Assembly: GCA_902775565.1 (NCBI GenBank)
Contig: CACYMP010000012.1
Coordinates: 1-64,000, forward strand
Reading direction: 5' to 3'
Origin: Oscillospiraceae bacterium
GTDB lineage: Bacteria; Bacillota; Clostridia; Saccharofermentanales; Saccharofermentanaceae
DNA length: 64,000 nucleotides
Under the pieces are notes generated by a model. It searched no databases. It was given only the letters and a program-made list of their open reading frames with translations, and was not told where the DNA came from. Positions 39,169 through 55,811 of this stretch are shown piece by piece; position 1 is the stretch's first letter; the number at the start of each line of letters is the position of its first letter. A program made the position numbers and the translations under genes.

Positions 39169-39681
39169 TTACTTCTGCAGTATCTTCTCCATCCAGATCA
39201 TGTTGTACCAGCGGCCGAACTTAAACCCGCATCTGTGGAAGGTACCGACGGTCTTATAACCAAGATGGCCGTGGAATCTTTCGCTGTCCTTTGTAAGATA
39301 CTCATCCTCTATCTCGGGATCGCCGATGCATGCATATAGATTTGTTATCTGTGTCTTTCTAAGTTCATCTTCCAGAGCTTTATAAAGTGCCCTTCCGTAT
39401 CCTTTGCCCTTTGAATCCTTATCGATATATATCGTAACTTCACATGAACGGTCGTAGGCGGCCCTGTTCTTAAAGACACCGGCATATGTATAACCCTGTA
39501 TCTTACCTTCGTCTTCTAAGACAATATACGGATATCTTTTAAGAGTATTTCGGATACGCGTGCGGAATTCTTCAATACATGGAACATCATATTCAAATGA
39601 AACGGCAGTCTTCTCCACGTAATATGAATAGATCTCAAGGAGTCTTCCGGCATCGTCGGCCGTCGCGGTGCGTATCAGCAT
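39169..39681 (-). CDS. GNAT acetyltransferase, phosphinothricin-acetyltransferase-like
   Basis: A 170-residue GNAT protein. The start MLIRTATADDAGRLLEIYSYYVEKTAVSFEY, the CoA-binding segment KGKGYGRALYKALEDEL, and the end FGRWYNMIWMEKIL resemble the Pat/MnaT branch, which acetylates phosphinothricin, methionine sulfone or similar amino acid analogues. It starts immediately after the MORN-like gene, and thus is the last gene of the nitrogenase-like operon. A role in handling a sulfur amino acid analogue would fit, but is inference. Confidence 0.82.
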   Translation of the reverse strand: MLIRTATADDAGRLLEIYSYYVEKTAVSFEYDVPCIEEFRTRIRNTLKRYPYIVLEDEGKIQGYTYAGVFKNRAAYDRSCEVTIYIDKDSKGKGYGRALYKALEDELRKTQITNLYACIGDPEIEDEYLTKDSERFHGHLGYKTVGTFHRCGFKFGRWYNMIWMEKILQK

Positions 39682-40278
39682 TTAATCCTCCCTTAAGATC
39701 TTTCCTTCTTTATCGAACTTAAGTGTCGCATTCTCAGCGTGCATCATTATGGGCCTGTATCTGTACGGCCTTATATCACCTTCAGGAGTATGTATAACTG
39801 TTTTGAATACGGGTTCTATGCTTCTTAATGCTCCGCTCTCGTAGAGCTCAAATCCGAGCTTTGTGCGGACATTGCCTGCGGGAGTAGGAACTTCTATCTC
39901 ATCGCAGGGCCAGATCGTGACGGCTCTGAGCTTTCCCGACGGATAGAAATAAAGGCACTGGGGCCTTACATGTATGGTTTCTCCCTTGATCTCAAAATCG
40001 TAGTACGGGGCAGTCTCAACCTCTTCTTCGATGCTCCAGTATGCGCTGATCTGGCCGTAGAGGGGGAATACCCTTTTAACGCTGCCGTCTTCGTAGAAGG
40101 TTATCAGCTCGGTCTGAAAGCTGCCTGCCGGGTAATCCAAGACCTCAGGTTCTTCTAAGTAGACGCTCCTTAACTGTCCGGAGCTGTAGTGATCTACTGC
40201 CGTCCTGTATTTCTTCCTGTAATCGGATGCTCCGCTGTAGGGAGTCAGGTAACCGTACCTGGTCTTTACCTTATCCAT
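39682..40278 (-). CDS. MORN-like protein linked to the nitrogenase-like operon, unknown function
   Basis: A 198-residue soluble protein made of short repeated units: YSSGQLRSVYLEEP, FYEDGSVKRVFPLYG, FYPSGKLRAVTIWP, LYESGALRSIEP and FDKEGKILRED. Each has a G-x-(L/V)-(R/K) core typical of MORN_2/YwqK-like repeats, between segments of unknown fold (for example IEVPTPAGNVRTKLG). No cysteine motif or signal peptide is present. It lies 5 bases after the NifB-like gene and directly before a GNAT gene, so it belongs to the same transcript. The function is unknown. Confidence 0.7.
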   Translation of the reverse strand: MDKVKTRYGYLTPYSGASDYRKKYRTAVDHYSSGQLRSVYLEEPEVLDYPAGSFQTELITFYEDGSVKRVFPLYGQISAYWSIEEEVETAPYYDFEIKGETIHVRPQCLYFYPSGKLRAVTIWPCDEIEVPTPAGNVRTKLGFELYESGALRSIEPVFKTVIHTPEGDIRPYRYRPIMMHAENATLKFDKEGKILRED

Positions 40279-40283
40279 AAGGC

Positions 40284-41558
40284 TTAACCGTGACTGAAAG
40301 TGTCCGCTGCCCTTTCCTTGCGGTCTTTATAAAGCTCGTTATGAAGGTCCTTGCCCTTGCCGGGGATACCTAAGCTGTCCGCCCTGCAGTGCTGGCAGTG
40401 ACGAAACACTTCAAGATACTTTCCTGCTTCAGCACGGACTTCTTCGAGATCGGCGCAGGTAGGAGCAGGGATGTCCTTCATCTCGTTCTGAGGGATCAAA
40501 GGGATTATGTTGAGGATGGATGCACCAAGTTCTGATGTGACCTTTGCTACCTTAGGTATATGCTTGTCGTTTACGCCGGGGACCAGCACGCTGTTTATCT
40601 TAACAACGATGCCCTTCTGCGCGGCCAGACGTATTCCTTCGAGCTGCTTATCTATAAGGAGTCTTGCTCCTTCTATGCCCTCGTGCTTTATTCCCTTCTC
40701 ATCAATTACGAAGTTATTTATCTTTGCTTCTATCTCAGGATCTACGGCATTTACCGTGACTGTCAGAGTCTCGATACCGATCTTAGCTATCTCTTCTATC
40801 TTGTCTGCAAGCCTGAAACCGTTTGTGGACAGGCAGCAGATAAGATCCGGGAATTCTTCTTTAACGAGCTTAAATGCTTTAAGGGCCTGATCGTTTGCCA
40901 GGGTGTCACCCGGGCCTGCAATACCGACTACGGTGAGCTCGGGGCACAGTTCCTTGGCTTTCCTTACGGTCTCAACAGCCTCTTCGGGCTTTAAGACCAG
41001 TGAGCTTACACCCGGTTTGATCTCGGATTTGTTGAATGCCCTTGTGCAGAATTTGCAGCTGATATTGCAGACGGGGCTTACCGGAAGATGTACTCTTCCG
41101 GCGGTGACATTCGAATGTCCTCCAAGGCACGGGTGCCTTCTCTGGAGATTCTCGAATGCACCTTTTGATGCGGATCCCGTGAAGGTCTTTCTCTTCTTTT
41201 CGTCTTTGTATTTTGGCGCGAGAATGCTTACTTTTGAATTGATCACCCTGTCAAGAACAAAAGTCACTTCACGTTCCACATCAACTGATTGTATAAGCTT
41301 GGCATCTAAAGCCTGCTTTGCATGAAGGCCCGATTTGGCCGAGAAGACTATGTTGCAGTCGTCTACTGCATCAGCAAGGCGCTCGATCAGGGAATCGTCA
41401 TGCTGGAGGCTTACTCCGTAGCTGTCGATTCTTCTCGTATCAACAAGTTCATACTTCTTCGCTTCGGTATCTATCTCATAGATATCGAACCTGTCGGCTA
41501 CTCCGAAGTGCCTGTTGATGTTTATTCCGTCGCCTGTTGCAAATGCTGCCCTGATCAT
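40284..41558 (-). CDS. NifB-like radical SAM cofactor maturase with N-terminal NifX-like domain
   Basis: A 424-residue protein. Residues 1-115 are a NifX/NafY-like cofactor domain (NRHFGVADRFDIYEID). The radical SAM part holds the HPC motif at 142-144, the CxxxCxxC cluster site at C164/C168/C171, AGPGD at 214-218, STNG at 244-247 and a C-terminal CQHCRAD (388-394) that supplies ligands for the substrate clusters. In classical NifB the NifX domain is at the C terminus; here it precedes the SAM domain. It should build an 8Fe-carbide cluster for the D subunit. It lies 9 bases after nflH. Confidence 0.9.
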   Translation of the reverse strand: MIRAAFATGDGININRHFGVADRFDIYEIDTEAKKYELVDTRRIDSYGVSLQHDDSLIERLADAVDDCNIVFSAKSGLHAKQALDAKLIQSVDVEREVTFVLDRVINSKVSILAPKYKDEKKRKTFTGSASKGAFENLQRRHPCLGGHSNVTAGRVHLPVSPVCNISCKFCTRAFNKSEIKPGVSSLVLKPEEAVETVRKAKELCPELTVVGIAGPGDTLANDQALKAFKLVKEEFPDLICCLSTNGFRLADKIEEIAKIGIETLTVTVNAVDPEIEAKINNFVIDEKGIKHEGIEGARLLIDKQLEGIRLAAQKGIVVKINSVLVPGVNDKHIPKVAKVTSELGASILNIIPLIPQNEMKDIPAPTCADLEEVRAEAGKYLEVFRHCQHCRADSLGIPGKGKDLHNELYKDRKERAADTFSHG

Positions 41559-41567
41559 TGGTAATCC

Positions 41568-42431
<864 letters not shown>

Positions 42432-43763
42432 TTATCTGTATGTGGCAAGAACTCTGTCGTAGATGTCTTCTATGGCACGGAGTCCGCCTTCATAGCCTAA
42501 ATAGCCGCAGTTCATTACAAGCCTGTGCTGGACTGGGACCGATATTATCAGGAGGTCCGCATTAAGTTCGTCCGCAATATGCTTGTCCCAGGAAGATCCT
42601 AAGATCAGGAGGCGCTTGTCCTCGTAGTCCTTTGCATCCTCGACGAGTTTCCTCTGGTCAAGACCGGCATCGGGATCAAAGACGACCTTTACGTCTCTTC
42701 TCTGGAGATCTGATATCCTGGAGAACTCGTCGAGCACACTCTCCTGGTACTTCTCCGGGATGTCATCGACGATGAACTGGATACCCGGGATGATTCCAAG
42801 CTCGTTTAACAGGAACTTGGAGAAACCCAAAGAGTAGGAAGCATCAGCAAGTGTGTAGAATCTTCTCGGGATTCCGTATCTGAACTCGAGCATGAAGCTT
42901 GCCATCTTGTCGATGTGTGAATAGAACTTCTTCTCTTCCCTGTCGATGTATGCTTCAACCTTCTTCTGGTCTAAGTTACCGAATTCAGCAACTCTTCTTA
43001 AGAACTCTGATGTCTCCTTTGCTCCGATCGGAGTGTAGGGGAAGTGCAGATAAGGTGTTCCGTACTTTCTCTTAAGGTGCTTTACGATATCAAGACCGGC
43101 CCAGGAGCCTACAAAGATGTTGAACTGTGCCTTGGGGATCGTCTTCCACTCGGATACGCCTTCGGATTCATTGCCGAAGAGGATGTTGACCTTGAGGCCT
43201 ATCCCGGTAAGTATCCTCTTGAGCTGCTCTAAGTTTCCGCTCCAATAGGGATCCTGATAAGGAATGCTGGCAAACACATTTACCAATCCGTCAATAACTT
43301 CGCTGTCTTCATAGAACTTGTCGACATACTGGTCGATTATGGCGTTTACCACTCTTGAATGACTTACGTAGTTATTGGACTTGAAACCGCCTTCTTCGAC
43401 ATACACGACCGGCTTGTCGTCTAACTGGAACTCGCCTACTACGGATGCGATATCGTCGCCCGTGATCGCAGCGGTGCAGCCCGTTATAACGACATAGAGG
43501 TCACCGTCGATTACCTTGAACGAATTCTCTATTACGTTCCTTAACTTCTTCTCGCCGCCGAAGACAACGTCTGCTTCTTCGGAGTTCGTGCAGGGCATCG
43601 TAGATCCGCCCGCATAGCCTTCGCCCTGTCCGATGAGTTCAGATATCTGGACTCCGCAGCCCGGGCCCGAGTGAAGGATCGGCACGCCCTTCTTTATTGC
43701 CACAACGCTCTGGCAAGCGCCGAGTGCGCATGTAAATCTCGGTTGTTCAATTGCTCCTGCCAT
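42432..43763 (-). CDS. Nitrogenase-like K subunit (NifK-like)
   Basis: A 443-residue protein. The open frame extends to 43871, but ATG 43763 is right: GGAGG sits 7-11 bases upstream and the D gene stops one base before. Cysteines C12, C36 (SGPGCG) and C96 (TGCTAAITGDD) match the spacing of the P-cluster ligands of NifK (C70, C95, C153), so a P-cluster or similar 8Fe cluster is plausible. Other K-type motifs are TNSEEADVVFGGEKKL and a C-terminal YLGYEGG. It forms a heterotetramer with the D subunit. The very short N terminus before C12 fits group IV, not NifK. Confidence 0.88.
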   Translation of the reverse strand: MAGAIEQPRFTCALGACQSVVAIKKGVPILHSGPGCGVQISELIGQGEGYAGGSTMPCTNSEEADVVFGGEKKLRNVIENSFKVIDGDLYVVITGCTAAITGDDIASVVGEFQLDDKPVVYVEEGGFKSNNYVSHSRVVNAIIDQYVDKFYEDSEVIDGLVNVFASIPYQDPYWSGNLEQLKRILTGIGLKVNILFGNESEGVSEWKTIPKAQFNIFVGSWAGLDIVKHLKRKYGTPYLHFPYTPIGAKETSEFLRRVAEFGNLDQKKVEAYIDREEKKFYSHIDKMASFMLEFRYGIPRRFYTLADASYSLGFSKFLLNELGIIPGIQFIVDDIPEKYQESVLDEFSRISDLQRRDVKVVFDPDAGLDQRKLVEDAKDYEDKRLLILGSSWDKHIADELNADLLIISVPVQHRLVMNCGYLGYEGGLRAIEDIYDRVLATYR

Positions 43764-43764
43764 C

Positions 43765-45270
43765 TTAAAATCCTCCGTTTCCCGCACCGGAACATCCTCT
43801 TCCGGAACCGTCACCCTGGAAATATCCGGGATCCTGGTCAAACCACCACTTGGTGTAAGGATTAGATGCATGCTTTGAATAGTTCTTTATGAATTCGATC
43901 GAATCCAATGCGTCTTCGATCCTTCTTGCATAGTTCAATGCGCCCTTGTAGCCGATACCGAACTGCTCGTCACCGATAAGGAGCGAAGGAATGCCGAACT
44001 TTGCTCCCCAGAGTGTCATTCCGCCGTGTCTTGCAAGGATGAGGTCCGGCTTGATCCTGTTGAGTGCATTTACGAGCTCACATGCCTGCTTGTTGCAGAC
44101 TCTGTAGTCCGGGACATCGCCGTAGTTCTTTACTGCCTGGCCTAAGATATCGAGCTTGTCGTCACCGCTGTCGTAGACCGGATCGTGATGGAATACCGCT
44201 GCACCTACAACGTCCATTCCGAGCTCGCCCAAAAGCGTGATGAGAGCCTGGCCGTGTGCTGCGCCTGCAGTTACATATGCTCTCTTTCCCTTGAATCTTT
44301 CCTTGAGCTTCTCGATCTCGGGAACGTACTTCTCGTGCCCTTCTTTGATCATCTCCTCAGCGAGCTCTTCCTTGCCTACAAGCTTGCCGAAAGCGCGGAG
44401 CCACCTGTCGGTTCCTGCTACGCCGTATGCCGGAGGTACCAATACTTCAGGTACGCCGTGGAGCTGGTTCAATCCTGCGCCCATGTATGTTGAGAGCGAA
44501 GGGCAGATGTGGATCGATGCTGCCGCTTCACTTACGTGTGACAGTTCTTCCACCGTTGAGAACGGGATTACGTACTGGGGCTCAAAGCCGAACCTTCTGA
44601 CGATGTCATCGAAGACATCATGGGAACCCCAGAAATTGATGATGTTTACCTTGTTGGTCTTCTTCTCAGCAGGCTTAACGATGCCTCTTAAGACCGCATG
44701 GTATGCAGCGTCAAAGCCCGTTGTCCAGATCTTGGACCTGAAACCTTCGCAGTTGCATGTAACTACGGGGATGCCGAGCTCTTTTGTTGCAGCTTCAACG
44801 ACCGATTCTATGTCCTCGCCGATAATGCCCGATGCACAGGATGTCGTGATGAAGATAGCCTTGGGCTTCTCCCTCTCATATACGAGCCTTATGGTATCCT
44901 CGAGCTTTTTGGCAGCACCGAAGACCGTGTCCTTCTCCAATATATTTGTCGAATAGTATCTTCCGAGCGCAGGCGGCAGATCTCTTCTGGACTGCTCGAT
45001 CCTGTATGTGAAGTTAAATTCCGCGAATTCGCCTGCGCAGCCGATCGGTGCGTGGTTTATTACGACCGCATCCCTGATCATGGCGAGCTGGCAGAACGCC
45101 TGCTGCTGGTTGCAGCCGAGGCACTGAGAGAACTTTCTCTTGCAGTCTTTAAGTTCTCCCTTTGCCGATTTCTCAACTATCTGTGAGGCAGAACCCGAGA
45201 AAGCATTTATCGTTCCGAGTCTTTTCTCTCGGATAACAACGCTTGGTTCTTTAATGTTGATCTGTGACAT
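43765..45270 (-). CDS. nflD: Nitrogenase-like D subunit (NifD-like), candidate methylthio-alkane reductase
   Basis: A 501-residue protein. Likely P-cluster ligands are C53, C78 (HAPIGCAG) and C145 (TTSCASGIIGEDI). C256 in IHICPSLSTYMGAG aligns with the FeMo-cofactor Cys275 of NifD. The histidine that binds Mo (His442 in NifD) has no counterpart in the corresponding GIPSLLIGDEQFGIGYKG segment, which suggests a different cofactor. The Gly/Cys-rich C terminus is unusual. It is the first gene of the operon, with AAAGGAG 10 bases upstream, and lies behind a LysR-type palindrome. It is probably the catalytic subunit for reductive C-S bond cleavage (inference from context). Confidence 0.88.
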   Translation of the reverse strand: MSQINIKEPSVVIREKRLGTINAFSGSASQIVEKSAKGELKDCKRKFSQCLGCNQQQAFCQLAMIRDAVVINHAPIGCAGEFAEFNFTYRIEQSRRDLPPALGRYYSTNILEKDTVFGAAKKLEDTIRLVYEREKPKAIFITTSCASGIIGEDIESVVEAATKELGIPVVTCNCEGFRSKIWTTGFDAAYHAVLRGIVKPAEKKTNKVNIINFWGSHDVFDDIVRRFGFEPQYVIPFSTVEELSHVSEAAASIHICPSLSTYMGAGLNQLHGVPEVLVPPAYGVAGTDRWLRAFGKLVGKEELAEEMIKEGHEKYVPEIEKLKERFKGKRAYVTAGAAHGQALITLLGELGMDVVGAAVFHHDPVYDSGDDKLDILGQAVKNYGDVPDYRVCNKQACELVNALNRIKPDLILARHGGMTLWGAKFGIPSLLIGDEQFGIGYKGALNYARRIEDALDSIEFIKNYSKHASNPYTKWWFDQDPGYFQGDGSGRGCSGAGNGGF

Positions 45271-45288
45271 CCTAAGGTTTCTCCTTTT

Positions 45289-45317
45289 GCAAAACCTATC
45301 AATCCGATAGGTTTTGC
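45289..45317 (-). promoter_or_regulatory. Stable stem-loop in the 5' leader of nflD
   Basis: GCAAAACCTATC pairs perfectly with GATAGGTTTTGC around a 5-base loop, ending just before the ribosome site of nflD. No T-run follows, so it is not a terminator. It may protect the mRNA or block the ribosome site conditionally. Confidence 0.6.
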
Positions 45318-45328
45318 TTTGTGCTTAT

Positions 45329-45406: not shown

Positions 45407-46309
45407 TTATGTATTGTCAGCAAATGACATGAGGTTGTCTATGTATTCCTGACCGAGCTCGCTTAATGTGCTGCCCATGCGGGTAACATAGATGACCGAG
45501 GTCTTCTCGCGGCTCTCATAAGGAATGGCTTTATAACCCGTTCCGTTTAATTCCTCGCAGATTATTCCGGAGCATAGCGTATAGCCGTTTAGACCGACCA
45601 TCATGTTGAGCATGGTTCCTCTGTCGTTCACCTTGATGATCTTTCTCTTCTCGAACATGCTGACAGGTTCTTCTGCCAGATAGATCGGATTCTCTTCACC
45701 CTGGTTGAACGTAAGACACGGATAGGGCTCCAAGTCATGGCTGGTTACTTTCTTCTTATCTGCAAGCGGATGATCTGAAGACAGATATACAAACACCTTG
45801 CAGTCAAAGAGCTTTTTGTACTCCAGGTTATTGACCCTCAGATACTTCATTAAAAAGTTGTGGTTATATTCATCCAAGTGGATTATGCCTATCTCGGATC
45901 TGAATGTTCTGACATCGTTTATAACTTCCGATGTCTTTCCTTCATAAATCGAGAATTCGTATTTCTCGGGATCATGGTTCTCTATGAGCTCGATATAGGA
46001 CTTGACCGCAAAGGTGTAGTGCTGTGCAGATACTCCGAATCTCTTCTTTTGTTCTTTATCTATATACCGTTCCTTAAGAAGGTCGTACTGAGCCACGACC
46101 TGTCTTGCATAGACGATGAAGTCTGCACCCTCCGTGGTAGTTGTAACGCCTCTGTTTGATCTCTCAAAGATGGTAATGCCTATCTCATCTTCCAAATCCC
46201 TTATCGCATCCGAAATAGCAGGCTGTGAGACATAGAATCTCTGTGCCGTCTTATTTATGGATTTCTCATCCGCCGTCGTTATCGCATACATCAGCTGTTG
46301 TAAAGTCAT
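45407..46309 (-). CDS. LysR family transcriptional regulator (next to nflD)
   Basis: A 300-residue LysR protein. The HTH occupies about residues 1-60 (SINKTAQRFYVSQPAISDAIRDLE in parts), followed by the two-lobed effector domain. It is closely related to the regulator at 47642-48556: both contain R-F-G-x-S-x-Q-H-Y-x-F-A-x-K and GYTLCSGIIC. It is the direct upstream neighbour of nflD in the same orientation, 136 bases away. By context it probably activates the nitrogenase-like operon in response to a sulfur signal, as LysR regulators do in sulfur metabolism. AAAGGGGG precedes the ATG. Confidence 0.87.
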   Translation of the reverse strand: MTLQQLMYAITTADEKSINKTAQRFYVSQPAISDAIRDLEDEIGITIFERSNRGVTTTTEGADFIVYARQVVAQYDLLKERYIDKEQKKRFGVSAQHYTFAVKSYIELIENHDPEKYEFSIYEGKTSEVINDVRTFRSEIGIIHLDEYNHNFLMKYLRVNNLEYKKLFDCKVFVYLSSDHPLADKKKVTSHDLEPYPCLTFNQGEENPIYLAEEPVSMFEKRKIIKVNDRGTMLNMMVGLNGYTLCSGIICEELNGTGYKAIPYESREKTSVIYVTRMGSTLSELGQEYIDNLMSFADNT

Positions 46310-47641: not shown

Positions 47642-48556
47642 TCATTTAAGATCCAATATCTTCTTTATCTCCCTGATATATCCTTCCGTAAGGGAACCTA
47701 ACTCGATATTGTTCTTGGTTATATATCCGATGTGCATGACAACATCATCGCCGTCGCCTTTGAATCTTATCATCTTATACTGCTGGCCGTTGACGTCGTC
47801 GCAGATGATACCTGAGCAGAGAGTATAGCCGTTAAGCTCGTTCATGAGATTTAATCCCGAACCTCTGTCGCAGACCTTTATCCTTCTGGGGTAATCCTTC
47901 TCCGCAAGGATCTCTTCAGCATAGTAGATGGGGTCTCCGTCGCCCTGTTCGAACGTAAGGCACGGGTAAGGTGCCAGGTCTTCCATCGTGATCTCTTCAT
48001 GATCTGCCAGAGGGTGCGTCTTCGTAATATATACGCAGGCCTTGCAGTCGATGAGCGGAGTAAAGTGAAGATCGTTGTCTCTTAGCTTCTTCTCTATTAC
48101 TTTCCTGTTATATTCGCTGATGAATAGTATTCCTATATCGCTCTTCATGGAGCCGACATCGTCAATTACGTCACGGGTCATGGTCTCCCTGAAGACGAAC
48201 TCGTATTTCTCAAGATCGAAGTCCTTTACGAATTCCGTGAAAGCCTTTATCGCAAATGAATAATGCTGGGTCGATATCCCGAAACGCCTCTTGCGCTTTG
48301 AAATGCCGGTAAAGCGGTCCTTTAACACCTCATACTGCTGGCTGACCTGCTTTGCGTAGATAATGAATTCCCTGCCCTCTGGTGTTAAGACCATTCCCTT
48401 GCCCGATCTGACAAAGAGTGAGAACCCTAATTCATTCTCAAGTTCCTTGATGGCTTTTGTAAGTGTGGGCTGCGTTATATAAAGAATCTCTGCGGCGCGG
48501 TTCATCGAGCCTGATTCGGTGATCGTTATCGCATAGAATAACTGCTGTATCGTCAT
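47642..48556 (-). CDS. LysR family transcriptional regulator (second copy)
   Basis: A 304-residue LysR protein with an N-terminal HTH (MTIQQLFYAITITESGSMNR onwards) and a two-lobed effector domain. It is a paralogue of the regulator at 45407-46309, with matching phrases KRRFGISTQHYSFAIK and GYTLCSGIICDDVNG. A large inverted repeat at 48632-48656 lies 76 bases upstream and suggests autoregulation. It stands between the sulfonate-type transporter block and the HD-domain unit. Together with the first copy it probably controls sulfur acquisition genes of this locus. Confidence 0.87.
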   Translation of the reverse strand: MTIQQLFYAITITESGSMNRAAEILYITQPTLTKAIKELENELGFSLFVRSGKGMVLTPEGREFIIYAKQVSQQYEVLKDRFTGISKRKRRFGISTQHYSFAIKAFTEFVKDFDLEKYEFVFRETMTRDVIDDVGSMKSDIGILFISEYNRKVIEKKLRDNDLHFTPLIDCKACVYITKTHPLADHEEITMEDLAPYPCLTFEQGDGDPIYYAEEILAEKDYPRRIKVCDRGSGLNLMNELNGYTLCSGIICDDVNGQQYKMIRFKGDGDDVVMHIGYITKNNIELGSLTEGYIREIKKILDLK

Positions 48557-49332: not shown

Positions 49333-50541
49333 TTATTCACCTGCCCTCATCGTGTAATAGGTCTCCGCATGAGAAAGGCTCAAGGTAGAAAGGAAAGATG
49401 AGACCGAACCGAACAATGTTGTCAGGATGACTCCCAATACTCCGTAGAGGATAACCAAAGAAACTGCAGGCATGAGATAAGGAACATCCAAAGAGTTCTC
49501 GATAAAACGGTTAAACGGAAATACCGTAAGTACGCCAAGGATAAGACCTGCAACTCCGCCTGCAGCTCCGATCGTGATGCCTTCAGTCAGAGAGAAAAGG
49601 CATATGCGGCGTGAGGATGTTCCCAAGATACGCAGTACTGCAAACTCCTTCTTTCTCTCATGGAAGATGACCGAGAAGAAAAGGATCATGGTAAGGAAAG
49701 AGAATACCAGAAGTACCGTCAAAGTAATATTGATTATGCTCTCGACAGATCCGAGCTTGACCGAGACATCGCTTAAGAGCTTGTCTGTCTCGATGAATCT
49801 GATCCCGTTTGCCTTCTTATATATCTCCTTCTCTATATTGGTGATATCCGCACCGTCATTGACTCTGATAAGGACAGTTGATACCCAGGAAGAGTCATCC
49901 TCGGGATTAAGGAACTGATAGCCCTTGTCCTTTGCATCGTTTAAGAGATCGTGCATGGTGTCTCTTGTCATGAAGACAGAGTGATCGAGCCCCGTAGCGG
50001 TCTCGCCGAGCTTGCCTGCAACCTTATATTCGCTGCCGAAGAACTTTACCTTGCCGTTGGCAAGAGGCGTTACTTCGCTTCCGATGATGACGCTTCCGTT
50101 TTCAGCGCCTGATGTTACCTTCTCGTCGATCCAGGGTGCGATCACGAAGTCTGTATCCGGATCGAATGCGATGAGCTGGACTCTTGTTGAGCAGCAGTCT
50201 GAAGAAAGTGAAGTGAAATAGAACTGGCTCGTTGCAGATTCAACTCCTTCTATATCCTCTGCTGCCTTGGCAACAGATGCGTTCATATAGAAGAACTCGG
50301 GCTCTCCGGTAAGAAGGATGTTGCGCGCCTTGATCTCGGACTCTTCGGGAACGATCATGAGATCTGCTCCCATGCGTTCCTTCATCCTGCCCAAGCCGTT
50401 ATTAAGTGACGACTTAAGTGAAAGACCTACAAAGAGAGCATAAGAACCTATAACGGCGGCAAGCATCAGGCAAAAAGACCTGTAAGGCCTTTTCCTGATG
50501 TTCCTGATGCCGAATCTGAAGCTGTCCTTAAGTCCTGACAT
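49333..50541 (-). CDS. FtsX-like ABC transporter permease
   Basis: A 402-residue MacB/FtsX-type permease. It has one N-terminal membrane segment (about 17-40), a large extracytoplasmic MacB-like domain, and three C-terminal segments from about residue 265. The ATG at 50541 is one base after the stop of the DUF4418 gene. It pairs with the ATPase downstream. Substrate unknown; its place in the block between the SsuABC-like genes and the LysR regulator suggests a role linked to organosulfur or metal use (inference). Confidence 0.85.
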   Translation of the reverse strand: MSGLKDSFRFGIRNIRKRPYRSFCLMLAAVIGSYALFVGLSLKSSLNNGLGRMKERMGADLMIVPEESEIKARNILLTGEPEFFYMNASVAKAAEDIEGVESATSQFYFTSLSSDCCSTRVQLIAFDPDTDFVIAPWIDEKVTSGAENGSVIIGSEVTPLANGKVKFFGSEYKVAGKLGETATGLDHSVFMTRDTMHDLLNDAKDKGYQFLNPEDDSSWVSTVLIRVNDGADITNIEKEIYKKANGIRFIETDKLLSDVSVKLGSVESIINITLTVLLVFSFLTMILFFSVIFHERKKEFAVLRILGTSSRRICLFSLTEGITIGAAGGVAGLILGVLTVFPFNRFIENSLDVPYLMPAVSLVILYGVLGVILTTLFGSVSSFLSTLSLSHAETYYTMRAGE

Positions 50542-50542
50542 A

Positions 50543-50947
50543 TCAGCCGTTCTTCTTTGATGCAAGATATGAGATCGTGTTGATCAGAGCAACAACTATG
50601 ACGAGCGCACCTGCGATTATGAGCGCCGGCTTTGTTCCGGAATTGCAGGGCATGTCGGCAGAGCCGCATACACCTATAACGACCGTAGGGATAAGGATCA
50701 CCAGCACACCGTTGATGGCTGATGCTGCTGCATATGCTGATGATGCGGCATTCTCTTTAGCTAAGACGATGAGCAGGCCCAATACCAATACTGTGATACC
50801 TAGCGCAACCTCAACCTGTGATGTCCAGTGGCACTTCATGAACTTGCCGTCCATGGCTGCGCATACCTTGAAGATCACTGTAGGTATGAGTGCTGTCAGA
50901 AGTCCCAGTAAGGCAATTACAATGCCTGTTATCTTATTCTTGCTCAT
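50543..50947 (-). CDS. DUF4418 family membrane protein
   Basis: A 134-residue protein with four membrane segments. The phrase FMKCHWTSQVEVALG and cysteines at VCAAMDG and ADMPCNSG are characteristic of DUF4418. These proteins typically accompany FtsX/MacB-type ABC systems; a copper or other metal link has been suggested but is not shown here. It sits between the SsuB-like ATPase gene (18 bases) and the FtsX permease (one base), so all belong to the same transcript. Confidence 0.8.
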   Translation of the reverse strand: MSKNKITGIVIALLGLLTALIPTVIFKVCAAMDGKFMKCHWTSQVEVALGITVLVLGLLIVLAKENAASSAYAAASAINGVLVILIPTVVIGVCGSADMPCNSGTKPALIIAGALVIVVALINTISYLASKKNG

Positions 50948-50965
50948 GTTTATTTCCTCTGTTTC

Positions 50966-51766
50966 TTAAATGTTGTATTCGGGCTCGGGAAGAGCAGTTG
51001 CAAGATCGAATTCCTCCAAGAGTTTTCTTCTCATAGCGAGGAACTCCACGCCGCCTCTTTGTCTCGGGTGGGGGATCTTGACGTCGATTATGTTGCTTAT
51101 CTTTCCCGGCCTCGGGGTCATTATGACTATCCGATCTGACAGGTAGATGGCTTCATCGATGTCATGCGTGACAAGTACCATCGTTATTCCGTTTAACTTA
51201 TGGAGCTCCAAGAGCTTGTCCTGGATATCTGCTCTGGTGAATGAATCGAGTGCTCCCATCGGCTCGTCTAAGAGCAGCATCTTGGGCTCGTTTATGAGAG
51301 TCCTTGCTATTGCTACTCTTTGTGCCATTCCTCCGCTTATCTGGTAAGGATAGGATTCTTCAAAGCCCTTGAGTCCGACGAGCTCAATGTATTTGGCGAC
51401 GTCGTCCTTCTTCTGCTTATAGACTCTTCTGGTCTTAAGTCCGTAGGATATATTCTGTTCGACCGTCAGCCAGTTAAAAAGGCCTCCCTGCTGGAACACA
51501 TATCCTCTTTCCGGATCGGGCTTGGTGATAGGATGGCCGTCCATCACTATCGTTCCCGAATCAGGCTTATCAAGACCTGCGATGGACCGGAGGAGCGTAG
51601 TCTTGCCGCAACCAGAAGCTCCTATTATCGAGATGAACTCGCCTCTTTTTATCTTGAGGCTGACGTCTTCCAATGCTTCGACGTCAGCGCCGTCATCGTC
51701 CTTATAGATACGCCTTAAATTCTCGATCGTAAGAATGATCTCTTCATCTTTAGTATTGTCTGCCAT
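50966..51766 (-). CDS. ABC transporter ATPase, SsuB/TauB type
   Basis: A 266-residue ATPase with Walker A GASGCGKTTLLRSIAG near residue 47, signature ISGGMAQRVAIARTL and Walker B MLLLDEPMGALD followed by VTHDIDEAIYLSDRI, typical of the sulfonate/taurine/nitrate importer ATPases. The start ATG at 51766 overlaps the permease stop (TAATG), which sets it against the upstream in-frame ATG. It powers import by the permease and binding protein upstream. Confidence 0.92.
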   Translation of the reverse strand: MADNTKDEEIILTIENLRRIYKDDDGADVEALEDVSLKIKRGEFISIIGASGCGKTTLLRSIAGLDKPDSGTIVMDGHPITKPDPERGYVFQQGGLFNWLTVEQNISYGLKTRRVYKQKKDDVAKYIELVGLKGFEESYPYQISGGMAQRVAIARTLINEPKMLLLDEPMGALDSFTRADIQDKLLELHKLNGITMVLVTHDIDEAIYLSDRIVIMTPRPGKISNIIDVKIPHPRQRGGVEFLAMRRKLLEEFDLATALPEPEYNI

Positions 51767-52755
51767 TATCTTACGAGTCCCTTCTGCCATCTGAGTGCGT
51801 ATTTCTCGATCCTTTCAAGGATCGCGGTGATGAAGCTGAACAGCACCGCCATTACCACGATAGCCGCGAAGACCTTGTAGTATGCGCTCCACACCTTTGA
51901 GAGGTTGATGTAGTAGCCCAAGCCTCCGGGCTGTCCCATCATCTCCGCCATTACGAGCGTCGTGAAGGCAAATGCGTTTGCTGTCGAGATACCCGTAAAG
52001 ATCTGGGGCATCGCATGGGGAACTGCTACCCTGAACACGAGATCGAACGTGTTGGAGCCTAACGTCCTTGCCGCTTCGAACTGCACCTTCGGCGTTGATT
52101 TGATGCCCTGCGCAGTAAGGCTTGTTACCGGGAACCATACGCAGATGACGATAAGGAATACAGCAGCTGCGAACGGTGTGGGCAGGAGCGTTAATGCAAA
52201 CGGCATCCAGGCAACTGCCGGTATTACGCCCGTGACGTTGAGCACGGGCGTAACCCAGTAGTAAACCTTGGGAAACCATCCTATGAGGATGCCTGTTCCT
52301 ACACCGAAAACGACGCCTAATACAAAGCCTGCCGCATAGAGCCTTAATGAATACAGTGTGTTCTCAAGCACGAACCCCGGCTCTATCAGGAACGCTTCGA
52401 TTATTCCCGCAGGACCCGGGAAGAACGGCTGGGGTAATACCTGCCATTTCGTTCCCAGAAGATCCCAGAGCAAAAGGCCGATGCCTGATGCAAATCTGAG
52501 CGGTGCGCCCTTTGCGAATTTCTTCCACCTGTCGTGATCCCTTAAGGATACGAGTCCCTGTACAAGGAACAGAGCTGACAGGAAAAAGAGTACAATCCTG
52601 TATGCGATGTTGATCGTTACGACCGTTCCGCCGATGTGATAGTCAACTATCTCAACGGGTGCGGTTATCGGGATCAGGGCGTTTAGAAGCGCCGCGATCA
52701 GGAAACCCGATACCGACAGGAGCAGTCCGTAGATGGCCGAACTCTTCTTTATCAT
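51766..52755 (-). CDS. ABC transporter permease, SsuC/TauC type
   Basis: A 329-residue permease. The C-terminal 200 residues carry six membrane segments and the BPD_transp_1 coupling loop (EAARTLGSNTFDLVFRVAVP). The N-terminal 100 residues hold two or three extra membrane segments not found in short SsuC proteins. It overlaps the binding-protein gene by 4 bases. It forms the membrane channel of an organosulfur-type importer. Confidence 0.9.
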   Translation of the reverse strand: MIKKSSAIYGLLLSVSGFLIAALLNALIPITAPVEIVDYHIGGTVVTINIAYRIVLFFLSALFLVQGLVSLRDHDRWKKFAKGAPLRFASGIGLLLWDLLGTKWQVLPQPFFPGPAGIIEAFLIEPGFVLENTLYSLRLYAAGFVLGVVFGVGTGILIGWFPKVYYWVTPVLNVTGVIPAVAWMPFALTLLPTPFAAAVFLIVICVWFPVTSLTAQGIKSTPKVQFEAARTLGSNTFDLVFRVAVPHAMPQIFTGISTANAFAFTTLVMAEMMGQPGGLGYYINLSKVWSAYYKVFAAIVVMAVLFSFITAILERIEKYALRWQKGLVR

Positions 52756-53798
52756 TTCTTGCCGTCCACATTTACATCAACGAAATACTTTGATGTATAG
52801 GTATCAGCATCGGTCTTGAGGTAACCGATATCAAAGAGCTGCTGTGCGAAATAGTGAACGTCTTCCTTAACGTTGAATACTCCGGCACTTCTCTGTTCAA
52901 ATGAAGGATAGTTGTAAGAGCTGATGAGCTGAACAGCGAGTTCTTTGTCCTCGATCTGCGAATACTTGCCCTTGATGATGATATCAACTGCCTTCTCGGG
53001 GTTCTTGTTGATGAAGTCCTGTGCCTTTCTGTAAGCACGGAGGAGTGCAGCAACTTCCTCGGGGTTCTTCTCGTAGAGTACCTTTGAAGCATACAGGAAG
53101 CAGCATGCCTTGCCTGCGAAAGGTTCATCCTTAGTGATGTCCAGGATAACCTTAACCTTGCCTGCCTTCTCAGCTACGCTTGCAAGCGGGTCCCACATTG
53201 CTGCTGCATCGAGGTCACCCTTATAGAGAGCTTCGAGCTCGAGGTTGCCGTCAGCGAAGGGAAGGAACTCAACCTGGTGATCTTCCTGTCTTGCTGAGAT
53301 ACCTGCGTTCTCCAGCCATACGCTTGCTACCTGGTGAGGTGTTCCGCCGACTTCGTCGACACCGATCTTAAGGCCCTTAAGATCCTCAGGATTCTTGATG
53401 TTGGAGTCGGGACGGACAACGATTTTGATGCATCCGTCGTGGAGCTTATCTACTACGACTGTGTTGACGCCCTGCTCCATTGACGGGAAGAACTGGAAGT
53501 CTCCGTTAACGATCGGGATCGTTCCGTTGTTAAGTCCGATCTTTCTTGTCTCGGTATCAGCCGAGATCAAGGTAACGTCAAAGCCTTCTTCCGTGAAGTA
53601 ACCGTTCTCATATGCGATATAGATCGGAGCACCGCAGAGCGAACCGTCGAGTGCAGGTATATTGATCTTGCCGTATTTGGAACCTGTTTCTTTTTTTGCG
53701 CAGCCTGCAAATGATAATGCAAGCGAGAAAAGCGAGATCACCGCTGTTGTCTTCTTAAGAGCGGCAATAACCTTTCCTTTAGTGAATCTCTGTGACAT
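52752..53798 (-). CDS. Substrate-binding lipoprotein, SsuA/NMT1-like
   Basis: A 348-residue protein with lipobox LSFAGC near residue 33 and an NMT1/SsuA-type fold: the start of the mature domain (ALDGSLCGAPIYIAYENGYF), LKGLKIGVDEVGGTPHQVAS and GDLDAAAMWDPLASVAEKAG are typical of sulfonate, taurine, nitrate and thiamin-precursor binding proteins. It is the first gene of the SsuABC-like operon. Its presence beside metY and a nitrogenase-like reductase suggests an organic sulfur ligand, but the exact one cannot be told from sequence. Confidence 0.88.
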   Translation of the reverse strand: MSQRFTKGKVIAALKKTTAVISLFSLALSFAGCAKKETGSKYGKINIPALDGSLCGAPIYIAYENGYFTEEGFDVTLISADTETRKIGLNNGTIPIVNGDFQFFPSMEQGVNTVVVDKLHDGCIKIVVRPDSNIKNPEDLKGLKIGVDEVGGTPHQVASVWLENAGISARQEDHQVEFLPFADGNLELEALYKGDLDAAAMWDPLASVAEKAGKVKVILDITKDEPFAGKACCFLYASKVLYEKNPEEVAALLRAYRKAQDFINKNPEKAVDIIIKGKYSQIEDKELAVQLISSYNYPSFEQRSAGVFNVKEDVHYFAQQLFDIGYLKTDADTYTSKYFVDVNVDGKK

Positions 53799-53870
53799 AA
53801 CTGTCGCCTCCTTCTTTCGATTGAGAAGATTTAAGCACAGAGACGTTTTTGCCGCTAATTTATAAATCTC

Positions 53871-53898
53871 ATAGAAACCTATAACAAAAGGCTATACA
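53871..53898. promoter_or_regulatory. Possible LysR-type half-sites upstream of the SsuABC-like operon
   Basis: ATAG-AAAC-CTAT (53871-53882) is a short dyad, and TATAAC with GGCTATA follow within 16 bases. The elements resemble half-sites of the palindromes at 45383 and 48632 but are imperfect. The region lies just before the start of the transport operon and overlaps the stop of the GNAT gene. Confidence 0.35.
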
Positions 53899-54386
53899 GC
53901 CTTAAATGTCAATCTCATTTGATACCAGGTCACTCCGCCGTGAAGTGTTTTCAGGGTGACTCCCTCGCTTACAAAACCGAAGCGTGAATAATAAGGAACT
54001 AATTCTTTCTTACAAGTTAGAACAACGCCGTCACGCGCCTGTTTGTCAGCTTCGCTTATAACATGCCTGATAAGCCTTCCTGCGCACCCTTTGTTCCTGT
54101 ATTCGGGGATGGTATTAACTCCGAAGATCATCTGCCATGAGCCGTATTCATCGTGCATGGAAGGATCTTCATACATGTCGTCGGTAAGATCTCTTTCGTC
54201 CGTGGCAAAGCCGTCGACAAAGGACACCAATCTGTCCCCGTCAAATAAGAGCCAGAAGTGATCGGGATAGTATTTAAGCCTTTCCCTGAAGGTATCTACG
54301 GTCGCTGCTTCATTTGCGGGGAAGCATTCCTTCTCCACTGCAGAAAGTATATTAAGGTCTTCTATTGTCGCTGTTCTTATATTCAT
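53892..54386 (-). CDS. GNAT family N-acetyltransferase
   Basis: A 164-residue GNAT protein starting MNIRTATIEDLNILSAVEKECFPANEAATV, of the type seen in arylalkylamine-like and YhfO-like acetyltransferases. The acetyl-CoA site is GVNTIPEYRNKGCAGRLIRHVI. It lies between divergent metY and the transport operon. Substrate unknown; acetylation of an amine or thiol analogue linked to sulfur metabolism is possible but unproven. Confidence 0.82.
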   Translation of the reverse strand: MNIRTATIEDLNILSAVEKECFPANEAATVDTFRERLKYYPDHFWLLFDGDRLVSFVDGFATDERDLTDDMYEDPSMHDEYGSWQMIFGVNTIPEYRNKGCAGRLIRHVISEADKQARDGVVLTCKKELVPYYSRFGFVSEGVTLKTLHGGVTWYQMRLTFKAV

Positions 54387-54482
54387 GCTCTTATTCTATA
54401 TGACGGTCCCTAAAGCCGGGTATACCTTTTATTTATCGGGTTAGATAAAAAACGTCTATTATCTTTAAAATGCAGTCTATTC

Positions 54483-54488
54483 TATAAT
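54483..54488 (+). promoter_or_regulatory. -10 box of metY
   Basis: TATAAT 27 bases before the ATG. No good -35 box lies at the standard distance, so the promoter probably needs an activator. GTCTATT occurs twice just upstream. No SAM or T-box riboswitch structure is recognisable in the short leader. Confidence 0.45.
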
Positions 54489-54515
54489 TCCTTCCATCAC
54501 AGGAGGACAAAGAAT

Positions 54516-55811
54516 ATGGCTTATAATTTCGACACATTAAAGATCCGTGCAGGATATAACCCGCTTGAGCATAACAATGCGGTAAGCGTACCTATCTACC
54601 AGACAGTTGCATATGAGATGGGAAGCACTGCAAGAGCAGATGCGCTCTTTGCATTCGAGCTCGAAGACCCGCTCTACACGAGAGTCTCAAACCCTACCGT
54701 ACAGGTACTTGAGAAGAGAGTTGCAGCACTTCACGGCGTTGATTATGCAGTAGCAGTCGCATCCGGAATGGCAGCTATCTCATATACGGTTCTCGCACTT
54801 GCTTCAAAGGGCGGAAGGATCCTTACCAGTCCAAGACTCTACGGCGGCGCGGTAGACGGATTCCATTCTATCCTTGAAGAACTGGGCGTCAATTACGACA
54901 TGATCGCAAACCCCGATGACCCCAATGAATTCGAGCGCAACATTAAAGAAGATACAAAAGCTATCTATATCGAAACGATCTCCAATCCTCTGGCAACAGT
55001 ACTGGATTTTGATGCCATCGCAGAGATCGCACATAAGCACGGCATTCCGCTCGTAGTAGACAACACCGCTGCAACACCTTATCTCTTCAATCCTTTCGAG
55101 CACGGCGCAGACATCGTTGTTTATTCAGCAACAAAGGCACTTTGCGGACACGGCAATGTAATCGCAGGCCTTATCTTAGAGAAGGGCGGCTTTAACTTCG
55201 ATCCGGCAAAGTTCCCCGTATTGGACAGAAAGCTCTGGTTCTTAAGAGACAGGAACGAAAATTCAAGGAGTATCCTCGATATCTTCCCCACTTCTCCCAT
55301 CACCGGAAAGATCAGGGCAGTACATCTTAATTATTTAGGTGCGGCGCTCTCTCCTTTTGACGCATACCTTATCCTTTTGGGAATCGAGACACTCTCCGAG
55401 AGAGTTTCCAAGCAGACATCATCTGCAGTCAAGATCGTTAAGTATCTTGAGACCAACAAGCACGTCAACTGGATCAGCTATCCTTACGCAAAGGGCAGCA
55501 AGTATAAAGAGCTTGCAGACAAGTATCTTCCTAACGGCGCAGGCGGAATCTTATCCTTTGAGTTTGCCGGCACCGAAGAGCAGAAGAGAAAGTTCATCGA
55601 ATCGGTAAACATCTTCGGATATCAGGCAAACATCGGCGACGCAAGATCTCTCATCGTCAATCCCGCCCAGACGACACACGGCGAGCTCACACACGAGCAG
55701 CGCGAGGTAACGGGCCTGTCGATCAACACGATCAGATTATCCATCGGTCTCGAAGACCCTCAGGACCTCATCGATGACCTTGACCAGGCATTCGTGAAGG
55801 CATTTGAATAA
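54516..55811 (+). CDS. metY: O-acetylhomoserine sulfhydrylase (MetY)
   Basis: A 431-residue PLP enzyme of the Cys/Met metabolism class. The PLP lysine is K207 in YSATKALCGHGN. The length, the start KIRAGYNPLEHN...AVSVPIYQTVAYE, and the end PAQTTHGELTHEQREVTGLSINTIRLSIGLED identify the MetY branch, not cystathionine gamma-synthase. It joins O-acetylhomoserine with sulfide, giving homocysteine, or with methanethiol, giving methionine. AGGAGG precedes the ATG. Divergent from the GNAT gene and the sulfur transport genes, it supplies the natural sink for a thiol released by the nitrogenase-like enzyme. Confidence 0.93.
   Translation: MAYNFDTLKIRAGYNPLEHNNAVSVPIYQTVAYEMGSTARADALFAFELEDPLYTRVSNPTVQVLEKRVAALHGVDYAVAVASGMAAISYTVLALASKGGRILTSPRLYGGAVDGFHSILEELGVNYDMIANPDDPNEFERNIKEDTKAIYIETISNPLATVLDFDAIAEIAHKHGIPLVVDNTAATPYLFNPFEHGADIVVYSATKALCGHGNVIAGLILEKGGFNFDPAKFPVLDRKLWFLRDRNENSRSILDIFPTSPITGKIRAVHLNYLGAALSPFDAYLILLGIETLSERVSKQTSSAVKIVKYLETNKHVNWISYPYAKGSKYKELADKYLPNGAGGILSFEFAGTEEQKRKFIESVNIFGYQANIGDARSLIVNPAQTTHGELTHEQREVTGLSINTIRLSIGLEDPQDLIDDLDQAFVKAFE

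What the first reader, a model, noticed from the sequence alone, without database searches (positions are those of the whole stretch)
39169..55811. Nitrogenase-like sulfur-salvage locus in a Clostridia-type genome
A D-K-H-B nitrogenase-like operon lies in one block with two LysR regulators, an SsuABC-like importer, a DUF4418/FtsX/ATPase transporter and a divergent MetY. NifE, NifN, NifV, NifU and NifS homologues and a molybdate transporter are absent from the window. In Rhodospirillum rubrum, marBHDK (methylthio-alkane reductase) releases methanethiol from methylthio compounds, and O-acetylhomoserine sulfhydrylase turns that thiol into methionine. The gene content here matches that logic. The order (DKHB), the domain order of the B protein and the added ORF at 39682 may mark a different branch or substrate.
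Basis: partly seen in the sequence, partly recalled or inferred. Interest (0 to 1): 0.93.

Follow-up and report, generated by a model that had tools for sequence, protein, structure and literature searches.

The report
Nitrogenase look-alike for scavenging sulfur
A genome related to rumen Clostridia carries a nitrogenase-like operon that likely breaks carbon-sulfur bonds to feed methionine synthesis instead of fixing nitrogen; the same protein family holds the enzyme credited with nitrogen fixation in a termite-gut bacterium, so some gut 'nitrogen-fixation' genes may have been misread.

Summary
In detail: a D-K-H-B nitrogenase-like operon (45270-40284, minus strand) sits with two LysR genes, an Ssu-like importer, a DUF4418/FtsX/ATPase set and a divergent MetY. 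It is not a Mar orthologue. D/K form a well-supported sister clade to MarDK; both kinds coexist in 6 of 9 chosen genomes. The clade keeps the metal-cluster ligands of the MarD structure (38 of 38 D aligned) but replaces pocket His194, mostly by Ile/Val (0 of 38 His; Mar 18 of 18). H is NifH-type, not MarH-type. Relatives carry MetY, CysK, MetNIQ-like or Ssu-like importer genes beside DK (21 of 25 dereplicated loci; 0 of 7 nifDK control loci); three place a SAM riboswitch before the operon; most linked MetY genes form a paralogue family of their own. Best reading: an importer-fed C-S reductase for methionine synthesis with an unknown, probably non-volatile substrate. The D of Endomicrobium proavitum, reported to fix N2 with a 'group IV nitrogenase', lies inside this clade and lacks the nitrogenase N2-site residues; that published claim is both main rival and main stake. 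A 2023 preprint already suggested methionine salvage for group IV-A.

The parts
43765..45270 (-). D subunit (501 aa) of the nitrogenase-like reductase, sister clade of MarD
   Evidence: Pfam PF00148; MarD 9fmg_A 424 bits versus 127 for the best non-Mar PDB chain; trees; AF2 model top hit 9fmg_A, TM 0.87/0.93
42432..43763 (-). K subunit (443 aa from the likely start at 43763)
   Evidence: MarK 9d9u_C 407 bits versus 59 for the next PDB chain; three P-cluster Cys conserved in 21 of 21 aligned K, 5 of them Mar-type; start read
41568..42410 (-). H, Fe-protein reductase of NifH type (280 aa)
   Evidence: TIGR01287 455.7 bits, over its cut-off 394.35; NifH 1cp2 469 bits versus MarH 9fmg_D 286; H tree
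40284..41558 (-). B, fused NifX-like + NifB-like radical SAM protein (424 aa), predicted [Fe8S9C] cluster maker
   Evidence: PF02579 at 11-105 and PF04055 at 159-339; NifB model TIGR01290 311 bits, below its cut-off 343.65; NifB structures up to 297 bits
39682..40278 (-). MORN-like ORF (198 aa), conserved after B in the close relatives
   Evidence: weak MORN_2, below cut-off; present in 20 of 24 close loci
39169..39681 (-). GNAT acetyltransferase, recurrent neighbour in close relatives; role unclear
   Evidence: PF13420; synteny
45407..46309 (-). LysR-type regulator 1
   Evidence: PF00126 + PF03466
46997..47587 (-). HD-domain ORF between the two LysR genes, same place in some close relatives
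   Evidence: PF01966 22.4 bits, cut-off 22; HD ORF found in 9 of 24 close loci
47642..48556 (-). LysR-type regulator 2
   Evidence: PF00126 + PF03466
48660..49340 (-). ABC ATPase of a MacB/LolD-like set
   Evidence: PF00005; TIGR02211 204 bits, below cut-off
49333..50565 (-). FtsX/MacB-like permease
   Evidence: PF02687, PF12704
50543..50947 (-). DUF4418 membrane protein
   Evidence: PF14387 108 bits
50966..51790 (-). Ssu/Tau-like importer ATPase
   Evidence: PF00005; best NCBIfam SaoA/NtrCD, below cut-off
51766..52755 (-). Ssu/Tau-like importer permease
   Evidence: PF00528
52752..53798 (-). SsuA-family (NMT1-like) binding protein
   Evidence: PF09084; TIGR01728 93 bits, below cut-off 163.5; weak PDB matches incl. 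SsuA 2x26
54516..55811 (+). Divergent O-acetylhomoserine sulfhydrylase (MetY paralogue), member of a clade linked to these DK loci
   Evidence: PF01053; TIGR01326 436.7 bits, below cut-off 495.1, while the host's other MetY (contig C6) scores 613.6; MetY tree

Best explanation
The operon encodes a nitrogenase-like reductase of a clade that is sister to methylthio-alkane reductase (MarDK), and it likely cleaves the C-S bond of an imported organosulfur compound so that the freed thiol would be turned into methionine by the divergent O-acetylhomoserine sulfhydrylase encoded beside it. Proposed steps: (1) the Ssu-like importer (or, in relatives, a MetNIQ-like one) takes up the compound [inferred]. 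(2) The NifX-NifB fusion B builds an [Fe8S9C] cluster that is placed in D on Cys256 and His415, with the P-cluster between D and K [inferred from conserved ligands]. (3) The NifH-type Fe protein H feeds electrons at the cost of ATP [inferred from family]. (4) DK reduces the C-S bond and releases a thiol, most simply methanethiol [inferred]. (5) MetY joins the thiol to O-acetylhomoserine [inferred]; CysK and a cystathionine gamma-lyase-like enzyme encoded elsewhere in the host could then pass sulfur to cysteine [gene presence shown]. (6) Expression answers to methionine/SAM or sulfur need: SAM riboswitches stand before the operon in three relatives [shown there], LysR here [inferred]. The substrate is unknown; the loss of MarD His194, the changed loop beside the cluster ligand and the linked importers point to a polar, non-volatile compound rather than dimethyl sulfide.
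For: Phylogeny: the clade has 38 rows (SH-aLRT 100) and 27 rows (100/99), next to MarD, with NifD, NifE, alternative D and BchN outside. PDB comparison: D 424 bits to MarD versus 127 to the best non-Mar chain, K 407 versus 59; AF2 model best match 9fmg_A, TM 0.87/0.93, 44% identity; non-Mar chains among the 50 listed reach TM 0.60-0.72. Sites: MarD C66, C73, C91, C158, W195, F199, C270, H375, R428, H429 kept in 38 of 38; H194 in 0 of 38 versus 18 of 18 Mar; N430 to G in 36 of 38. K Cys in 21 of 21 aligned, 16 window-type and 5 Mar-type. Neighbours: PF01053, CysK or importer genes in 66 of 80 loci (20 of 24, 9 of 9, 37 of 47), 0 of 7 nifDK control loci; after dereplication at 80% D identity 21 of 25. 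Of 34 MetY-type rows 29 form one clade (SH-aLRT 100) that excludes the host's canonical MetY, 38% identical. SAM riboswitches directly before D in L040 and L051 and before MetNIQ-D-K in L039. No sulfite reductase in G000 or in 16 of 16 further D-bearing genomes.
Against: No substrate, product or phenotype is shown. E. proavitum, whose D lies in this clade, is said in four papers, all citing one report, to fix N2 (passages seen; the report, Zheng 2016, not held), and Heliophilum's homologue was proposed as its dinitrogenase. Riboswitches lead the operon in only 3 of 47 outer loci and neither in the window nor in the 11 nearer loci scanned. 10 of 47 outer loci show none of the sulfur genes, 5 of them on contigs under 10 kb. 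Two MetY genes of loci with a window-type D (L053_7770, L088_7247) fall outside the linked clade. The sulfite-reductase gap is a genus trait, also in 20 of 20 genomes without D. The nif control is small and its loci are shorter (12.5 kb versus 16-18 kb on average). H is NifH-type, as in true nitrogenases. The Ssu-like importer is also the partner of the sulfonate enzyme Isr. B is below the NifB model's cut-off.
Confidence: 0.62

Rival explanations
1. It is a group IV-A nitrogenase (NfaHDK type) that fixes N2, as reported for Endomicrobium proavitum, and the sulfur genes are bystanders or serve cluster assembly.
For: P0250, the E. proavitum D, lies inside the clade; papers cite 15N2 incorporation by that strain, with these as its only nif-like genes according to PMC9147875 (passages and sections); NflDK1 of heliobacteria, which by gene order is the window type in H. 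mobile, was proposed as a dinitrogenase; window H passes the nifH model.
Against: His442 of NifD is absent in 27 of 27 and the NifD Val70/Gln191/His195 positions read Cys/Trp/Phe as in MarD; MarDK with the same ligands makes no 15NH4 above background (PMC12552129); no NifEN in the genome; methionine and sulfur genes, a linked MetY clade and, in three loci, SAM riboswitches accompany the clade.
Confidence: 0.13
2. It is simply a Firmicutes methylthio-alkane reductase with the R. rubrum substrates (dimethyl sulfide, 2-methylthioethanol).
For: All cluster ligands and most pocket residues of MarD are kept; MetY beside it; NifB-like radical SAM protein.
Against: Separate clade, 41.6-45.2% identity to 18 Mar sequences, while members of the MarD clade (at least 57.6% to R. 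rubrum MarD; H. mobile 81%) occur in Firmicutes and coexist with this type in 6 of 9 chosen genomes; His194 lost in 38 of 38; the MetY beside MarD in L039 is of the other kind.
Confidence: 0.2
3. It is an isethionate/sulfonate reductase like IsrBHDK, fed by SsuABC and releasing sulfite.
For: Ssu-like importer in the window and beside DK in relatives; IsrBHDK needs SsuCAB (PMC11423573).
Against: IsrD keeps one of three P-cluster Cys and lacks the Cys275 equivalent, window D keeps all; IsrB resembles NifB only in the radical SAM motif, window B scores 311 bits to the NifB model; no sulfite reductase in the host.
Confidence: 0.06

Closest known systems
Methylthio-alkane reductase MarBHDK (Rhodospirillum rubrum; PDB 9fmg, 9d9u; PMC12552129)
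   Same: Predicted D fold, six P-cluster Cys, Cys270, Arg428-His429 loop, His375, Trp195, Phe199; NifB-like partner; methionine context
   Different: Sister clade at 41.6-45.2% D identity; His194 replaced, mostly by Ile/Val, Asn430 by Gly; H is NifH-type here; B fused to NifX; operon order D-K-H-B; linked importers and a different MetY paralogue
NfaHDK, 'group IV-A nitrogenase' of Endomicrobium proavitum; NflDK1 of heliobacteria (PMC9147875)
   Same: Same D clade, same ligand pattern
   Different: Reported as N2-fixing; its H is said to group with MarH, the window H groups with NifH
IsrBHDK isethionate reductase (Rhodobacter capsulatus; PMC11423573)
   Same: Group IV, radical SAM partner, Ssu-type importer, reductive C-S cleavage proposed
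   Different: Only one P-cluster Cys in IsrD, no Cys275 equivalent, IsrB not NifB-like, product sulfite
Mo-nitrogenase NifHDK of Clostridium pasteurianum
   Same: Window H is a close relative of its NifH
   Different: D/K outside the NifDK clade; no His442; no NifEN in the genome

Membership tests
Methylthio-alkane reductase (Mar) | D falls inside the MarD orthologue clade | tested here: not met
   Sister clade: 38 and 18 rows, both SH-aLRT 100; 27 and 8 rows, 100/99 and 100/100
Methylthio-alkane reductase (Mar) | Six P-cluster cysteines in D and K | tested here: met
Methylthio-alkane reductase (Mar) | Cluster ligands Cys270 and His429 with Arg428 in loop I (suggested hallmark) | tested here: met
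   38 of 38
Methylthio-alkane reductase (Mar) | His194 beside S2B | tested here: not met
   0 of 38 versus 18 of 18 Mar
Methylthio-alkane reductase (Mar) | MarH-type reductase | tested here: not met
Methylthio-alkane reductase (Mar) | Releases methanethiol plus hydrocarbon from methylthio-alkanes | not testable with these tools
   Needs assay
Group IV-A NfaHDK | D in one clade with E. proavitum D | tested here: met
   P0250 inside, 100/99
Group IV-A NfaHDK | N2 fixation | not testable with these tools
   Residues argue against it
Mo-nitrogenase NifDK | D in the NifD clade, with His442, Gln191 and His195 | tested here: not met
Mo-nitrogenase NifDK | NifEN present in the genome | tested here: not met
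   6 PF00148 matches, none near the NifE cut-off; genome 93.6% complete
Isethionate reductase (Isr) | IsrD with a single P-cluster Cys and no Cys275 equivalent | tested here: not met
   Window D has all; definition
BchNB / CfbD | D/K inside the BchN/BchB or CfbD families | tested here: not met
   BchN outside; BchB and CfbD models far below their cut-offs; BchB and CfbD not placed in a tree

The most novel reading that the evidence does not exclude
The whole 'group IV-A nitrogenase' family (NfaDK), including the E. proavitum enzyme and the Butyrivibrio/rumen Clostridia operons whose H passes as nifH, is not a nitrogenase family but a SAM-controlled C-S reductase for methionine synthesis, working on a non-volatile, actively imported thioether through its own O-acetylhomoserine sulfhydrylase paralogue; part of the gut and termite 'nifH' record would then report sulfur scavenging.
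Probability: 0.45. Interest if true: 0.88.

Novelty: new variant of a known kind. Interest (0 to 1): 0.72.

Why it matters
It adds a third sulfur-linked branch to the nitrogenase superfamily beside Mar and Isr, found in Clostridia, Paenibacillus, Coriobacteriales, Synergistaceae and Treponema among others. It makes a published claim, N2 fixation by a group IV-A enzyme, directly testable, and warns that H proteins passing the nifH model can belong to a probable sulfur-scavenging operon: in the human-gut survey PMC4995403 the Cluster III nifH of Lachnospira and Butyrivibrio was read as potential N2 fixation although, by that paper, the NifD of some of these strains lacks the key His 'as in E. 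proavitum'. It also offers a comparison (His194 replaced in an otherwise nearly identical cluster site) for learning what sets substrate choice on an [Fe8S9C] cluster.

Tried and rejected
Rejected: orthology with MarDK; Isr membership; Nif membership. Led nowhere: SsuA and MetQ comparison with solved structures gave only family-level matches, so no substrate could be named; Rfam on the window itself found nothing; LysR families give no specific ligand. The sulfite-reductase gap looked like support, but the control showed a genus trait (0 of 20 genomes without D have it either), so it only speaks against the sulfite route in this host. Truncations: one search kept 80 of 275 relatives; some searches listed 120 of 1182, 829 and 1166 hits; one search listed 30 of 70 papers; trees use chosen subsets (87 and 52 D rows; 62 H rows, with most near-identical window-clade H left out; 48 of 73 PF01053 rows after dereplication, loci L009 and L010 not collected). 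Groups A, B and C (24, 9 and 47 loci) were set by hand from D identity, and the 9 genomes were chosen by me. In the tree one row that I had labelled 'other' (L060_943) fell inside the window-type clade and was counted with it. Riboswitch scan: all 47 outer loci, 7 of 9 Lachnospiraceae, 4 of 24 near loci and the window. The match of H. mobile's window-type pair to the published NflDK1 accessions rests on order along the contig: 9 ORFs lie between it and MarDK where 7 accession numbers are free, and 7 between it and the next pair where 7 are free.


Full report
What is there. The block 39169-55811 is as described. D (43765-45270) and K (likely start 43763) are PF00148 proteins, H (41568-42410) is a NifH-family Fe protein, and B (40284-41558) joins an N-terminal NifX-like domain to a C-terminal NifB-like radical SAM domain. 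The operon runs D-K-H-B. Upstream on the same strand lie LysR, an HD-domain ORF, LysR, an ATPase/FtsX/DUF4418 set, an Ssu-like ABC importer and a GNAT; MetY is divergent. The genome G000 (2.61 Mb, 93.6% complete) has six PF00148 matches, two of them here and four on contig C2. Near relatives are MAGs of rumen and gut Clostridia (99% D identity to L008, 88-94% to the other near loci with a full D, 79% to Butyrivibrio).

What family D and K belong to. Against solved structures D scores 424 bits with MarD (9fmg_A) and 127 with the best non-Mar chain; K scores 407 with MarK and 59 with the next. The AlphaFold2 model of D (mean pLDDT 81.6) has 9fmg_A as best match, TM 0.87/0.93. Yet it is not MarD. 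A search with R. rubrum MarD found close relatives in Firmicutes too, such as Heliobacterium, Pelosinus and Clostridium. In a tree of 87 D proteins the window type is a 38-row clade (SH-aLRT 100) beside an 18-row Mar clade (100), with NifD, NifE, alternative nitrogenase D and BchN outside. A careful tree of 52 rows gives 27 rows at 100/99 against 8 Mar rows at 100/100, the two joined (with one other row) at 95/85. Both kinds coexist in 6 of 9 chosen genomes: H. mobile, C. akagii, Pectinatus, Paenibacillus sinensis, Ruminiclostridium papyrosolvens and C. algoriphilum; not in Acetobacterium, Butyrivibrio and Lachnospiraceae C10.

Cofactor site. In MarD the [Fe8S9C] cluster is held by Cys270 and His429, with Arg428, Trp195, His194 and His375 around it (PMC12552129). 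In 38 window-type D, Cys66, 73, 91, 158 and 270, Trp195, Phe199, His375, Arg428 and His429 are all kept; His194 is His in 18 of 18 Mar and never in the 38 (Ile 24, Val 10, Leu 2, Gly 1, Met 1); Asn430 is Gly in 36 and Pro in 2; Gln74 is kept in only 27. The three K cysteines are kept in 21 of 21 aligned K, 5 of them Mar-type. So the cluster chemistry of Mar is predicted, with a different substrate face.

The reductase and the cluster maker. H is closer to C. pasteurianum NifH (469 bits) than to MarH (286). In a 62-row tree it sits in a 37-row clade with NifH proteins of nif operons (SH-aLRT 98), while R. rubrum MarH and the H of Ruminiclostridium, Chlorohelix and others form a separate 19-row clade (97). 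The same kind of DK thus occurs beside two kinds of H. Window H passes the NCBIfam nifH cut-off (455.7 versus 394.35), so it would be named a nitrogenase iron protein. B stays below the NifB model's cut-off (311 versus 343.65). In outer loci where B is found it is usually a radical SAM ORF of about 280-350 aa with a NifX-like ORF of about 105-160 aa elsewhere in the locus (exceptions by length: L042, L076, L087); the window clade and the Lachnospiraceae set have ORFs of mostly 419-452 aa that match window B (only window B was scanned for domains).

Neighbours. In 80 loci (24 near, 9 Lachnospiraceae, 47 outer), PF01053 enzymes lie near DK in 11, 9 and 29; an Ssu-like or MetNIQ-like importer in 19, 9 and 28; any of these or CysK in 20, 9 and 37. 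Seven nifDK control loci show none, though they are shorter. After dereplication at 80% D identity the figure is 21 of 25. The close relatives L012, L018 and L020 have a MetNIQ-like importer between B and the MORN ORF, which the window lacks. Ten of the 47 outer loci show no sulfur gene; 5 of them are on contigs under 10 kb, and one, L051, has a SAM riboswitch before D instead. The MetY-type genes split: 29 of 34 rows are one clade (SH-aLRT 100) with the window's; the other five are the host's canonical MetY (38% identical to the window's), the one beside MarD in L039, and those of L053, L088 and L089. The host also has CysK and a cystathionine gamma-lyase-like gene on contig C14, and no sulfite reductase. 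The latter is a genus trait: absent in 16 of 16 further genomes with this D (15 of the genus and Butyrivibrio) and in 20 of 20 of the genus without it.

Regulation. All 47 outer loci were scanned with Rfam. RF00162 SAM riboswitches were found in 5 of 47. In L040 (Clostridium guangxiense) and L051 (C. algoriphilum) one ends 167 and 240 bases before the D ORF on the same strand; in L039 one precedes MetN-MetI-MetQ-D-K and another MetY-H-MarD; in L053 one precedes a MetY gene; the one in L043 is about 9 kb from D. None was found in the window or in the 11 nearer loci scanned, where LysR genes may do the job (inference).

The published rival. In PMC9147875 (first part of section 3.5 read, legends as passages) the H. 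mobile NflDK1 is WP_155475363/362, NflDK4 WP_155475372/371 and the Mar homologue NflDK5 WP_155475353/354. On the H. mobile contig the window-type pair lies between MarDK and a third pair, so by order it is NflDK1 (inferred, with the number of ORFs fitting exactly on one side and off by two on the other). That paper places NflDK1 with the group IV-A NfaDK of Endomicrobium proavitum and suggests it is Heliophilum's dinitrogenase. I then found the E. proavitum D itself (P0250): it lies in the window-type clade and shows the MarD-like pattern, Cys, Trp and Phe where NifD has Val, Gln and His, with Arg428-His429 and without His442. E. proavitum is said to fix N2 in passages of PMC9147875, PMC11257099, PMC4995403 and PMC8399215, all citing one report that is not held. 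So either a Mar-like site fixes N2, or the report needs another explanation. The surroundings of this clade speak for sulfur: Acetobacterium, the nearest fetched locus to E. proavitum in the tree, has MetY directly before D. I could not see the E. proavitum locus.

What was already said. A 2023 preprint (PMC10418091, discussion read) noted that MarHDK-like genes of group IV-A accompany methyltransferase clusters and suggested methionine salvage. The Isr paper (first quarter, genome profiling and discussion read) shows a sulfonate-cleaving cousin that differs in its cysteines. My searches of the open library (listings, the last one cut at 30 of 70) showed no title or abstract that ties the E. 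proavitum family to SAM riboswitches or to a dedicated MetY; subscription papers, including North 2020, were not seen.

Gut relevance. PMC4995403 (discussion read, other passages) reports Cluster III nifH, related to Lachnospira and Butyrivibrio, in 10.7-31.7% of people in four populations, and that some such NifD lack the key His 'as in E. proavitum' while others keep it. The Butyrivibrio sp. MB2005 genome here has only this D and K as PF00148 matches. The OTU sequences themselves were not compared, so the link is an inference and would cover only part of those genes. That paper also measured 15N2 incorporation and acetylene reduction in faecal samples, which this reading does not explain away.

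Verdict. Real, and a new branch of a known kind. Function in sulfur assimilation is likely; C-S reduction on an [Fe8S9C] cluster is the best mechanism; the substrate is open.

Noticed in passing
L007 5990-17298 (G000 contig C2, about 83990-95300); L163 (Lachnospiraceae C10): A second nitrogenase-like cluster: NifH-like, four D/K-like ORFs, HypF (733 bits), HypD (372), HypE (426) and HydF (553). The host has one [FeFe]-hydrogenase and HydE (569 bits) but no HydG over cut-off. In 17 genomes, all with a PF02906 match (in G152 only a fragment), HydG over cut-off occurs in 5 and HypD in 9, never both; 3 have neither. This suggests that HypDEF plus a nitrogenase-like reductase replaces HydG in making the H-cluster's CO/CN-bearing iron. 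Caveats: 16 of the 17 are one genus, so few independent events; two of the three with neither are 99% complete; Lachnospiraceae C10 has a 172-bit match to the HydG model, below cut-off. No paper in the library held all of HydF, HypD, HydG and nitrogenase-like (listings only).
   Followed up: partly
L174, L175, L176 (unnamed relatives G114, G036, G140): Further group IV loci in the same family: CysK-like, NifB-like, NifX-like, NifH-type H, CysK-like, a D/K pair of another type (and in two of three a second D/K pair), with DUF4418/FtsX/ATPase genes in two of three; also sulfur-linked, not placed in a tree.
   Followed up: partly
L088 (Candidatus Chlorohelix plasmid), L089 (Treponema saccharophilum plasmid pTS2): Group IV nitrogenase-like clusters with O-acetylhomoserine sulfhydrylase and ABC transporter genes on large plasmids, so the sulfur module can ride on plasmids.
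   Followed up: partly
L023 and L177 (D-K-H-B loci of near relatives, possibly one genome): The H gene is split into two overlapping ORFs of about 159 and 151 aa: a frameshift or an assembly error; left as it is.
   Followed up: no
window 29100-36464: BREX-like genes: PglZ-domain protein, BrxL and a two-AAA ATPase next to each other.
   Followed up: no
window 24090-27674: A RelA/SpoT-domain protein next to a PPDK_N-domain protein, an unusual pair.
   Followed up: no
L032-L035, L053, L054: A recurrent ORF (153 aa in L053) near DK that by sight looks like an Rrf2-type regulator (family name recalled, not scanned).
   Followed up: no
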